A DNA stretch of 64,000 nt, taken from the NCBI RefSeq assembly GCF_013328815.1, contig NZ_JABUHN010000003.1:1-64000 (forward strand), given 5' to 3'. Below, in pieces: positions 5,617 through 8,911 of this stretch; position 1 is the stretch's first letter, and the number at the start of each line of letters is the position of its first letter. Position numbers and translations under genes: made by a program. This DNA comes from Tabrizicola fusiformis (GTDB taxonomy: Bacteria > Pseudomonadota > Alphaproteobacteria > Rhodobacterales > Rhodobacteraceae). The notes under the pieces were generated by a model, which ran no database searches, was not told where the DNA came from, and worked only from the letters and a program-made list of their open reading frames with translations.

Positions 5617-6489
5617 ATGCGGATCGTCTATCATCTCGGGGCGCATTTCACCGATGAAGAGCGTCTTCTGAAATGCCTCGGACGCAACCGTGATCTTCTG
5701 GCGCAGCATTCCATCGTCGTGGCCAATCCCAAACGCTACCGCAGCCTCTTGCGCGAAACCGCGATCCGGCTGAAAGGCGCCGCCGCCACGATCGAGGAAC
5801 AGGCGCTGATCCTGGAACAGATCATGGAGGAAGACCGCGCCGACCGGCTTATCCTGTCATGGGAAAGCTTCATGTCGCTGCCGGCCTGGGTACTGAAGGA
5901 CAAACTTTACCCCTCGGCCGGCGAGCGGACCCGCGCCTTTGCCCAGATCTTCCCCCAGATCGAGGCCGAGTTCCACCTTGGCCTGCGCAACCCCGCCACC
6001 TTCCTGCCGCTGCTTTATGACCGGCTGAAACCTGCCAGCTATGGCGAATTTCTGGCCGGGGCCGATCCTTTCGCGCTGCGCTGGTCGGATGTGGTGGAGC
6101 AGATTCTGGATGCCAACCCCGACGCGCCGCTGACCGTCTGGTGCGACGAGGATACGCCGCTGATCTGGCCCGAGGTGTTGCAGGCAGTCTCCGGCCTGCC
6201 CGAAGGCACGCCGCTTGAAGGCGAAGAGGATCTTGTCGCCTCGCTGATGTCGGGCGAGGGGCTGACCCGGATGAACACCTATATCGCCGGTCACCCGCCC
6301 CAGACCGTGCTGCAACGGCGCAAGATCGTCTCGGCCTTCCTCGACAAATTCGCTTTGCCCGAACGGATCGAGCTGGAATTCGAAATGCCCGGCTGGACCG
6401 AAGACATGGTCGAAGACCTGACCGCGCTTTACGAGGAAGACGTGGCGCGCATCGCCGCCATGCCCGAGGTCACCTTCCTGCACCCCTGA
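5617..6489 (+). CDS. Conserved hypothetical protein, sulfotransferase-like N-terminus
   Basis: 290 aa, normal codon use for this GC-rich genome, and a start 89 bp from the divergent permease start. I do not recognise a characterised family. The opening IVYHLGAHFTDEERLL and the spacing of later blocks (LILSWESFM, EAEFHLGLRNPATFLPLLY) loosely recall proteins that bind a nucleotide phosphate in the way sulfotransferases do, but no proper PAPS loop is visible. There is no signal peptide and no membrane segment, and the protein is acidic at its C-terminus. It is probably a soluble cytoplasmic protein. It ends in front of a large inverted repeat shared with the convergent sulfur operon. Confidence 0.6.
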   Translation: MRIVYHLGAHFTDEERLLKCLGRNRDLLAQHSIVVANPKRYRSLLRETAIRLKGAAATIEEQALILEQIMEEDRADRLILSWESFMSLPAWVLKDKLYPSAGERTRAFAQIFPQIEAEFHLGLRNPATFLPLLYDRLKPASYGEFLAGADPFALRWSDVVEQILDANPDAPLTVWCDEDTPLIWPEVLQAVSGLPEGTPLEGEEDLVASLMSGEGLTRMNTYIAGHPPQTVLQRRKIVSAFLDKFALPERIELEFEMPGWTEDMVEDLTALYEEDVARIAAMPEVTFLHP

Positions 6490-6528
6490 CGCCCCTGCCC
6501 GGCGCCGGGGGCCAGCCCCCGGACCCCC

Positions 6529-6623
6529 GGAGTATTTCAAAAGGTGCAAATGCAGGGGCGGTTGCGCGAACCTGCCCGCGCAACCGCCCCTGCCCCGGGG
6601 ATTTGCACCTTTCGAAATACTCC
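6529..6623. repeat. Long inverted repeat between convergent genes, probable bidirectional terminator
   Basis: A 17-bp perfect stem (GCAGGGGCGGTTGCGCG, 6552-6568, with its complement at 6577-6593) closes an 8-base loop. Outside it AGGTGCAAAT pairs with ATTTGCACCT, and the outermost GGAGTATTT pairs with AAATACTCC. The element lies exactly between two converging transcription units, so it can serve both strands. The outer arms resemble the GGGATATTT repeat found elsewhere in the window. Confidence 0.75.
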
Positions 6624-6677
6624 CGCCGGAGGCAGCGACGCCAGCACCGGGCGCCACCCCTGTCTGATTGCGAAACC

Positions 6678-7544
6678 TCAGCGCGCGGCGGCGGCCTCGA
6701 TCTGGTCGCGCAGGGCGGCGTGGTTGTAGCCGTGCCGCGCCGTGGTGGCGATCATCTCGTCCACCGGCAGTTTGCCCGCATTCATCAGCATCCAGACGAT
6801 GGACGACCGGTTGCCCGAGGCGCAATAGGCAAAGACCGGGCCGCTTGCCGCCTCGACCGCGGCCTTCTGCACCGCGACAACCTCGGCGCTGAGGGCACCC
6901 GGATAGACCGGGTTGATCACGAAGGTCAGGCCCAGCGCCTCGGCCGCGGTCTTGACTTCGGCCCCATGCAGATGGGCCGGAATCTCGCCATCGGGGCGGT
7001 TGTCGATGATGGTGGTAAAGCCGGCGGCCTTCAGCGCGGCAAGGTCGGAAATCTCGATCTGCGGCGAGACGGCATAGGCGGGGGTAAGGGCGCGGATGTC
7101 CATGGCACTCCTGAAAAGGGTGAGTGTGTCGATCCGCTGACGGACCATTGGTGCGAAAACCATAGCCGTGACCATGGCGAGAAGGAAGACCAGACCGCCC
7201 CAGCCGCCAAAGCCCAGCGAGGCCAGCGCCGGCCCGGGGCAGAGCCCCGCCAGCGCCCAGCCCATGCCGAACAGGACCGAACCGATCACCAGATTGGGGC
7301 CGACCTCGCGCTTGGGCGGTTCGGGAAAGGCGCCGCCAAGGACCGGATGATACATCCGCGCCGCCACCCGCCAGGCAACCGCCATCGGCAGGATCGCCCC
7401 GCCCAGCACAAAGGCCAGCGTCGGATCCCAGTCGCCGAACACATCCAGCCAGCCCTGAACCCGGGTGGTGTCGGTCATGCCCGACAAGAGCAGCCCCGCC
7501 CCGAAGATACCGCCCGCCAGCGCCGAAAAGCCAAGGCGCCTCAT
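6678..7544 (-). CDS. YeeE/YedE-family (DUF6691) half fused to DUF442-type sulfurtransferase domain
   Basis: 288 aa from the ATG at 7544, one base after the stop of the preceding YeeE half. Residues about 1-140 form four hydrophobic helices with the family signature GMGWALAGLCPGPALASLG, whose conserved Cys is thought to relay sulfur. Residues about 150-288 match the DUF442/TIGR01244 sulfurtransferase-phosphatase fold, with the active loop FAYCASGNRSS. In characterised Blh proteins DUF442 is fused to a persulfide dioxygenase; here it sits on the channel subunit instead. This suggests direct hand-over of imported or sulfide-derived sulfur to a cysteine at the membrane. It is the last gene of a three-gene operon. 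Confidence 0.85.
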   Translation of the reverse strand: MRRLGFSALAGGIFGAGLLLSGMTDTTRVQGWLDVFGDWDPTLAFVLGGAILPMAVAWRVAARMYHPVLGGAFPEPPKREVGPNLVIGSVLFGMGWALAGLCPGPALASLGFGGWGGLVFLLAMVTAMVFAPMVRQRIDTLTLFRSAMDIRALTPAYAVSPQIEISDLAALKAAGFTTIIDNRPDGEIPAHLHGAEVKTAAEALGLTFVINPVYPGALSAEVVAVQKAAVEAASGPVFAYCASGNRSSIVWMLMNAGKLPVDEMIATTARHGYNHAALRDQIEAAAAR

Positions 7545-7545
7545 G

Positions 7546-7968
7546 TCACAGCACCCCGGCAACGTGGCGCAGCAGCGCCATGGTGACGCCGCCCGCCAGC
7601 ACATAGAACACCGTGGCGACGATGCCCCGCAGGCTCAACCGCGAGATGCCGCACACCCCGTGCCCCGAGGTGCAGCCATTGGCCAGCCGCGTGCCCAGCC
7701 CCACCAGAAGCCCGCCCGCGATGATCAGAAGCCAGTTCTGCGTCAGATGGGTTTCGGCCCCCGCCGCAAGGCCCAGAACCGCCGGAACCGCCACCAACCC
7801 GGCGATGAAGGCCGCCCGCTCGGCCCATGTGCCGCGCCCGCTGCCATCGACCAGCCCGCCAAGGATGCCGGAAATCCCCATCACCCGGCCATTGACCAAG
7901 AGATAAAGCGAAGCCGCCCCGCCGATCAGCAGCCCGCCCAAGAATCCCCAAAGCCAGGACAGTTCCAT
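7546..7968 (-). CDS. YeeE/YedE family membrane protein (sulfur transport, N-terminal half)
   Basis: 140 aa, almost entirely hydrophobic with about four helices. The diagnostic motif GTRLANGCTSGHGVCGISRLS holds the Cys pair expected in YeeE/YedE and PmpA-type proteins, which move thiosulfate or sulfide-derived sulfur. It forms a two-subunit channel with the next gene, from which it is separated by one base. It begins 3 bp after the stop of the metallo-hydrolase gene, so the three are co-transcribed. The substrate is inferred from the family and the sulfur-related neighbours. Confidence 0.88.
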   Translation of the reverse strand: MELSWLWGFLGGLLIGGAASLYLLVNGRVMGISGILGGLVDGSGRGTWAERAAFIAGLVAVPAVLGLAAGAETHLTQNWLLIIAGGLLVGLGTRLANGCTSGHGVCGISRLSLRGIVATVFYVLAGGVTMALLRHVAGVL

Positions 7969-7971
7969 GCC

Positions 7972-8835
7972 TTACAACCCGTTGATCGGAAGTTTCAGAT
8001 AGGACAGGCCATTGTCCTCGGGTTCGGGCATCTGGCCTGCCCGCATGTTCACCTGCAAGGAGGGCAGGATCAGCCGGGGCATTCCCAGCGTGGCATCGCG
8101 CTTTTGCCGCAGCGCCACGAAGTCCTCGCGCGATTTTCCGGCGCCGACATGGACGTTCAGCGCCTTTTGCGCGCCCACTGTGGTTTCCCAGGCAAATTCC
8201 TCGCGCCCCGGCGCCTTGTAGTCATGGCCGACGAAGATGCGGGTTTCCTCGGGCAGCGACAGGATCTTTTGCACCGAATGCCACATGGTTTCGGCCGAGC
8301 CACCGGGGAAATCGCAGCGCGCGGTGCCGAAATCGGGCATGAAGAGCGTATCGCCGACAAAGGCCGCATCGCCGATCACATAGGTCAGGCAGGCCGGAGT
8401 ATGGCCGGGCGTATGCAGCACCTCACCGCGCAACTGGCCGATCATCAGCACATCACCTTCGCGGAACAGCCGGTCGAACTGGCTGCCGTCGCGCTGAAAC
8501 CGCGTGCCCTCGTTGAATATCTTGCCGAAGGTTTCCTGCACCACGGTAATGCGGTCGCCAATGCCGATCTTGCCGCCAAGCCGTTCCTGCAGATAGGGTG
8601 CGGCGGAAAGGTGGTCGGCATGGACATGGGTTTCCAGCACCCATTCCAGCCGCAGCCCCTGATCCCTGATGAATTCCACCACCGCATCAGCCGAGCGCGT
8701 GTCGGTGCGCCCGGACGCCTGATCGAAGTCCAGCACCGAATCGATCACGGCGCAGGCCCGCCCCTCGGGCTCGACCACGACATAGGTGATGGTGTTGGTG
8801 GCCACGTCAAAGAAGCCATGGACGGCGGGTTTCAT
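7972..8835 (-). CDS. MBL-fold persulfide dioxygenase-like hydrolase (ETHE1/Blh type)
   Basis: 287 aa from the ATG at 8835. The longer in-frame extension is rejected because it would run through the promoter -10 box. The metal site is seen in THVHADHLSA (about residue 75), the later HTPGHTPA, and GDTLFMPDFGTARCDFPGGS. The last segment is typical of ETHE1-like persulfide dioxygenases and Blh rather than of glyoxalase II. It should oxidise glutathione persulfide to sulfite in the cytoplasm. It is first in the operon with the channel halves and the DUF442 domain, together a sulfide detoxification unit. No rhodanese or sulfide:quinone reductase is visible nearby. Confidence 0.85.
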   Translation of the reverse strand: MKPAVHGFFDVATNTITYVVVEPEGRACAVIDSVLDFDQASGRTDTRSADAVVEFIRDQGLRLEWVLETHVHADHLSAAPYLQERLGGKIGIGDRITVVQETFGKIFNEGTRFQRDGSQFDRLFREGDVLMIGQLRGEVLHTPGHTPACLTYVIGDAAFVGDTLFMPDFGTARCDFPGGSAETMWHSVQKILSLPEETRIFVGHDYKAPGREEFAWETTVGAQKALNVHVGAGKSREDFVALRQKRDATLGMPRLILPSLQVNMRAGQMPEPEDNGLSYLKLPINGL

Positions 8836-8859
8836 CGCTGCGCTCCGCTTATTCACGAC

Positions 8860-8911
8860 CATATTGGCCGGGTTTTCTGGACTGTCAACATATTTAGCAA
8901 TGAGAATATGT
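8860..8911 (-). promoter_or_regulatory. Sigma70-like promoter with overlapping palindromic operator
   Basis: Reading leftwards, TTGACA (8888-8883), a 17-base spacer and AATATG (8865-8860) form a good promoter for the sulfur operon starting at 8835. Directly upstream, and overlapping the first -35 base, lies a perfect inverted repeat ACATATT-N10-AATATGT (8888-8911). AT-rich palindromes in this position upstream of persulfide-dioxygenase operons are controlled by ArsR-family persulfide sensors (BigR/SqrR) in other alphaproteobacteria. No such regulator gene is in the window, so the binder is inferred. Confidence 0.7.

What the first reader, a model, noticed from the sequence alone, without database searches (positions are those of the whole stretch)
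6678..8911. Sulfide operon with DUF442 fused to the YeeE-type channel rather than to the dioxygenase
In Blh proteins DUF442 and the ETHE1-like domain are one chain. Here the DUF442 domain is attached to the C-terminal half of the YeeE/YedE channel and the dioxygenase is separate. This implies sulfur transfer coupled to membrane passage. A clean promoter with an abutting ACATATT-N10-AATATGT palindrome suggests persulfide-sensor control by a regulator encoded elsewhere.
Basis: partly seen in the sequence, partly recalled or inferred. Interest (0 to 1): 0.6.

Follow-up and report, generated by a model that had tools for sequence, protein, structure and literature searches.

The report
Sulfur importer fused to its sulfurtransferase
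In a small group of Rhodobacter-like bacteria, half of a membrane importer for reactive sulfur has become joined to the enzyme that normally sits next to it as a separate protein, and the DNA at the joint still carries an intact-looking start signal, so the one gene may make both a membrane-tethered and a free form of the enzyme.

Summary
The fusion is real. Window 6678-7544(-) encodes 288 aa: DUF6691 (a PmpB-type half of a YeeE/YedE channel) joined to DUF442/TIGR01244, the only DUF442 in the genome. PmpA (7546-7968) and a stand-alone Blh-type dioxygenase (7972-8835) lie upstream. The gene order is ordinary: in most Rhodobacteraceae checked, PmpB and DUF442 are separate genes, usually 8-14 nt apart. 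The fusion is a derived, clade-limited loss of the PmpB stop codon (21 distinct fused loci found; 6 of 295 family genomes). New here: all 21 fused genes keep an internal ATG and nearly all a Shine-Dalgarno sequence at the junction, written with a codon rare elsewhere in the gene. That suggests two products, fused and free. The palindrome is real, overlaps the -10 hexamer, is one mismatch from the SqrR site, and is conserved (44 of 64 upstream regions against 0.4 expected). A SqrR-like repressor lies on another contig. Best reading: sulfane-sulfur import, transfer to glutathione and oxidation to sulfite, under SqrR control. New variant of a known kind.

The parts
6678..7544 (-). PmpB (DUF6691, 4 predicted TM) fused to DUF442/TIGR01244 sulfurtransferase, 288 aa; channel Cys102 (GLCPG), catalytic Cys241 in C-x-S-G-x-R
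   Evidence: Cys102, Cys241 and Arg246 invariant in all aligned rows; AlphaFold2 model pLDDT 88, pTM 0.67
6678..7103 (-). possible free DUF442 product (141 aa) from the internal ATG, codon 148
   Evidence: ATG in 21/21 fused loci; split relatives start their separate gene at the same Met
7104..7112 (-). internal Shine-Dalgarno AGGAG (7108-7112) and 4-nt spacer before the internal ATG
   Evidence: duplex energy -6.2 against -2.2 expected with synonymous codons, p 0.018 for this locus; AGG in 16 of 17 Arg codons at this position of fused loci against 4.4% elsewhere
7546..7968 (-). PmpA (YeeE C-terminal-half homologue), 140 aa, Cys99
   Evidence: PF04143 254-307/310; aligns to 200-325 of TsuA 6leo/8j4c
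7972..8835 (-). stand-alone Blh/ETHE1-type persulfide dioxygenase, 287 aa (start ATG at 8835)
   Evidence: NF040641 141-422, E 1.6e-123; PF00753
8888..8911 (.). palindromic operator ACATATT-N10-AATATGT; minus strand holds ATTC-N8-AAAT, one mismatch from the SqrR site ATTC-N8-GAAT
   Evidence: SqrR consensus as quoted in PMC9774250
8905..8933 (-). sigma-70-type promoter TTGAAA-17-CATATT; its -10 lies inside the operator
6529..6623 (.). 95-nt near-perfect hairpin between this operon and the convergent gene 5617-6489(+); probable bidirectional terminator
   Evidence: folding z -9.2 for 6520-6640

Best explanation
This is a SqrR-controlled operon for importing sulfane sulfur and oxidising it. PmpA and PmpB together form a YeeE-like path that passes sulfane sulfur inward over one conserved cysteine in each half (Cys99, Cys102). 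DUF442, held at the cytoplasmic end of PmpB by a short linker, takes the sulfur on Cys241 and gives it to glutathione; the separate dioxygenase oxidises the glutathione persulfide to sulfite. With no persulfide, a SqrR-type repressor made elsewhere binds the palindrome over the -10 and shuts the operon. The fusion arose by loss of the PmpB stop codon in a widespread gene order. Because the old DUF442 ribosome-binding site and ATG are kept, the gene probably makes both tethered and free DUF442. Shown by sequence: architecture, conserved cysteines, conserved operator, repressor homologue with both sensor cysteines, clade restriction, conserved internal start. Inferred: transport, direction, sulfur hand-over, repression, translation of both products.
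For: Domains and gene order. Only one DUF442 in the genome, so any DUF442 activity serving the dioxygenase must come from this gene. Channel Cys102, catalytic Cys241 and Arg246 invariant in every aligned row. PmpA aligns to TsuA 200-325. PmpAB-type YedE1E2 with a dioxygenase imports zero-valent sulfur into GSSH, and both conserved cysteines are needed (PMC10812762). A natural YeeE-YeeD channel-sulfur-carrier fusion exists, and a YeeE-YeeD fusion modelled on it is solved (PMC11073785). Blh DUF442 is a sulfurtransferase coupled to its dioxygenase domain, and BigR binds the -10 region (PMC5823870). Operator: 44/64 upstream regions within 3 mismatches, 0.4 expected. SqrR homologue, best match 6o8k E 2.8e-38, both cysteines kept. 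Charge pattern puts the PmpB C-terminus inside. Internal start.
Against: No transport, enzyme or expression data exist for these proteins. R. capsulatus has a Blh-type fusion (rcc01824) reported as not SqrR-regulated (PMC9995734), so SqrR control is not universal for such dioxygenases. Short PmpAB need not act in sulfur oxidation: H. denitrificans pmpAB did not respond to thiosulfate (PMC11582611). No close homologue of the Agrobacterium-type SQR was found in the genome (best 27% identity, E 2e-6), so the internal source of persulfide is unclear. The stronger internal Shine-Dalgarno of fused against split loci cannot be separated from shared ancestry: the tree gave too few independent pairs. 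The membrane part of the model is only moderately confident (pLDDT about 65-90) and no complex was modelled.
Confidence: 0.7

Rival explanations
1. Neutral fusion: the PmpB stop codon was lost by chance, the fused chain works just as the two neighbouring proteins do, and tethering has no function. The internal start simply goes on making DUF442 and the fused chain is a tolerated by-product.
For: Gene pair adjacent in most relatives; fusion limited to one clade with split relatives mixed in; internal ATG kept 21/21.
Against: The fused genes have diverged to 62-78% identity to the window while keeping the open reading frame through linkers of different length and sequence, and both cysteines stay invariant.
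Confidence: 0.3
2. Obligate tethering: only the fused chain is made, and the junction ATG and AGGAG are relics. DUF442 acts solely at the channel mouth, as YeeD does for YeeE.
For: Precedent of YeeE-YeeD single chains (PMC11073785); short linkers; cytoplasmic C-terminus.
Against: AGG, GGA or AGA is kept at the junction (21/21 have G at -8) while AGG is 4.4% of Arg codons elsewhere; the motif survives in different amino-acid contexts (R-S-K, G-S-T, A-G-A-K).
Confidence: 0.2
3. The operon is mainly for export or detoxification of sulfite or thiosulfate, not import of sulfane sulfur.
For: The Acinetobacter yeeE-yedE-pdo2 operon is described as detoxification with an unknown sulfur form moved (PMC7315123).
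Against: YedE1E2 sped up import but not export of zero-valent sulfur (PMC10812762).
Confidence: 0.1

Closest known systems
YedE1E2/PmpAB zero-valent sulfur importer with persulfide dioxygenase (Cupriavidus, Sinorhizobium, Serratia, Acinetobacter)
   Same: Two short 4-TM halves, one key cysteine each, dioxygenase encoded alongside in many, BigR-type control in some
   Different: DUF442 is not part of the channel there; here it is joined to PmpB
Blh (DUF442-ETHE1) of the bigR operon, Xylella/Agrobacterium
   Same: Same two enzyme domains; BigR/SqrR-type regulation at the -10
   Different: Blh is one chain; here the dioxygenase is free and DUF442 is on the channel
YeeE-YeeD (TsuA-TsuB) single-chain thiosulfate uptake, e.g. 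Corynebacterium
   Same: Channel with a cytoplasmic sulfur-carrying domain fused at its C-terminus
   Different: Full-length 9-TM channel and a TusA-like domain, not a half channel and a PTP-like rhodanese
DUF442-SQR proteins, e.g. Agrobacterium F2 plasmid EGP54065.1
   Same: DUF442 gene directly after SDO-PmpA-PmpB, about 14 nt from PmpB
   Different: DUF442 is fused downstream to a flavoprotein, not upstream to PmpB

Membership tests
PmpAB/YedE1E2 short YeeE-family pair | two short subunits of about 140 aa, N- and C-half homologues of YeeE, encoded together | tested here: met
   the PmpB half carries an extra C-terminal domain here
PmpAB/YedE1E2 short YeeE-family pair | one conserved cysteine per subunit | tested here: met
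   Cys99 (PmpA) and Cys102 (PmpB part); Cys102 invariant
PmpAB/YedE1E2 short YeeE-family pair | imports zero-valent sulfur | not testable with these tools
   needs an uptake assay
DUF442/TIGR01244 sulfurtransferase | TIGR01244 above cut-off and C-x4-R loop (CxSGxR) | tested here: met
   120.1 bits against 85.85; C241 and R246 invariant
Blh (NF040641) | DUF442 and ETHE1-like domains in one chain | tested here: not met
   two separate ORFs, neither reaches the 625-bit cut-off
SqrR/BigR-controlled operon | operator like ATTC-N8-GAAT at the promoter | tested here: met
   one mismatch at 8888-8911, over the -10; conserved upstream of homologues
SqrR/BigR-controlled operon | ArsR-family repressor with two sensor cysteines in the genome | tested here: met
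   L112:1429-1800(+), best solved match 6o8k; LMILCHL and LFCG cysteines; below the NF040642 cut-off (92.6 of 155 bits), so SqrR-like rather than the BigR equivalog
SqrR/BigR-controlled operon | repressor binds the operator and releases it with persulfide | not testable with these tools
   needs gel shift

The most novel reading that the evidence does not exclude
One gene makes two forms of a sulfurtransferase, a channel-tethered one that unloads imported sulfur at the membrane and a free one for the dioxygenase, with the ratio set by the strength of an internal start site kept by selection across a clade after the stop codon was lost.
Probability: 0.45. Interest if true: 0.6.

Novelty: new variant of a known kind. 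Interest (0 to 1): 0.42.

Why it matters
It ties DUF442 physically to the PmpAB importer and so gives a simple genetic handle on an open question: how imported sulfane sulfur leaves the channel and reaches glutathione and the dioxygenase. It also gives a clean case of a natural gene fusion that appears to have kept its internal start, with split sister genes as ready controls.

Tried and rejected
Fixed in-frame spacing between PmpB and DUF442 as a sign of stop-codon read-through: rejected. The loci first found were biased to one frame because a single match spanned both genes; in a further sample of 39 loci from genomes outside that set, 34 had DUF442 next door in the other two frames, most with gaps of 8-14 nt. 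Independent-pairs test of fusion against Shine-Dalgarno strength: no power. Sequence profile of DUF6691 against solved structures: nothing at E<=1; the half assignment rests on Pfam positions and on Li et al. 2024. Fold search matched only the DUF442 half in its top list, to phosphatase-like folds. Pseudorhodobacter turbinis (L176), the best plasmid hit, turned out to be split by an in-frame stop. Paper searches for DUF6691 and for DUF442 with YeeE found nothing, which covers open-licence papers only.

Full report
Observation. The ORF at 6678-7544(-) is a single uninterrupted chain of 288 aa with DUF6691 at its N-terminus and DUF442/TIGR01244 at its C-terminus. The start used here is the ATG at 7544, just downstream of the PmpA stop. 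Upstream on the same strand are a 140-aa YeeE-family protein (7546-7968) and a 287-aa dioxygenase matching the C-terminal two thirds of Blh (7972-8835). The genome has one DUF442 match in all. The palindrome at 8888-8911 is exact, and ATATT-N10-AATAT occurs at four places in the 4.4-Mb genome against none for the reversed control.

Which half. The upstream partner aligns with 200-325 of the solved TsuA chain and with the end of the Sulf_transp profile, so it is PmpA-like. The DUF6691 part aligns with positions 31-102 of that profile, so it is PmpB-like, the N-terminal half, in line with Li et al. 2024 (PMC11582611).

How common. In 295 genomes of the family, 270 have a match; six have both domains in one open frame (G000, G121, G077, G247, G021, G283). 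The GTDB contig scan adds more, giving 21 distinct fused rows and 80 split rows. Among 398 genomes across the phylum the only listed stop-free match spanning both domains was the window itself (that list is cut, but spanning matches rank at its top). Split neighbours are the rule: 34 of 39 in a sample of loci not chosen for sharing a frame, and an Agrobacterium plasmid carries SDO-PmpA-PmpB-DUF442/SQR in the same order. In a tree built from the two domains all fused rows fall in one well-supported set of 28 rows with 7 split rows; the best tree needs six changes, but well-supported branches force only one, so the number of origins is open.

Internal start. At the junction of the window the ancestral start is intact: AGGAG-TGCC-ATG-GAC-ATC-CGC. 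All 21 fused rows keep ATG and G at -8; 19 of 21 have a strong Shine-Dalgarno match against 34% of split rows and 15% of other in-frame ATGs in the same genes. Arg three codons before the ATG is AGG in 16 of 17 cases while AGG is 4.4% of Arg codons elsewhere in these genes; in the other rows the codon is GGA or AGA, so the motif is kept in different amino-acid contexts. For the window alone, synonymous recoding reaches the observed strength with p 0.018; over loci the combined value is small but the loci are related, so it is indicative only. The comparison of fused with split rows is confounded by ancestry.

Regulation. Sixty-four distinct upstream regions of dioxygenase homologues were scored: 44 hold ACATATT-N10-AATATGT with at most three mismatches against 0.4 expected in dinucleotide shuffles, and 22 are within one mismatch of ATTC-N8-GAAT against 4.6 expected. 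These regions are related to each other, but they are non-coding. ATTC-N8-GAAT is the SqrR site as quoted in PMC9774250. The site covers the -10 hexamer, which is where BigR acts in Xylella (PMC5823870). The genome's best SqrR/BigR-like protein is on contig C34, best solved match 6o8k, with both sensor cysteines. That 6o8k is R. capsulatus SqrR is from my own knowledge; the record names it only as an ArsR-family regulator.

Mechanism. PmpAB-type YedE1E2 imports zero-valent sulfur, makes GSSH and needs both conserved cysteines (PMC10812762). The Blh DUF442 domain is a sulfurtransferase coupled to its dioxygenase (PMC5823870). YeeE-YeeD shows that a channel can carry its sulfur acceptor in the same chain (PMC11073785). 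Charges around the four hydrophobic segments place the PmpB C-terminus inside, and the model shows the last helix running to residue 142 with the DUF442 fold starting near 150. Transport, hand-over and repression are inferred.

Verdict. The architecture is genuine, rare and not described in the open-licence papers searched, but it is a small change to a well-known gene order. The conserved internal start is the more informative part.

Noticed in passing
window 6529-6623: 95-nt near-perfect hairpin (folding z -9.2) between the convergent genes 5617-6489(+) and the fusion; probable shared terminator.
   Followed up: partly
L182-L185 near position 1501 (contigs C1, C2, C12 of the window's genome): A family of perfect 22-bp palindromes CAAATTC[CG]TTNNAA[CG]GAATTTG, at least 22 copies in the genome and none in the window; the four looked at sit beside other palindromes of similar shape.
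   Followed up: partly
genome C12:187566-187587 (L120, L180): Second near-perfect SqrR-type site (ATTC-N8-GAAT exact), upstream of an ORF resembling protein-L-isoaspartate methyltransferase; a possible further target of the repressor.
   Followed up: no
split relatives, e.g. L016, L019, L027: Many split PmpB-DUF442 pairs have a 9-11 nt gap and no recognisable Shine-Dalgarno before DUF442, which suggests translation coupled to the upstream gene.
   Followed up: no
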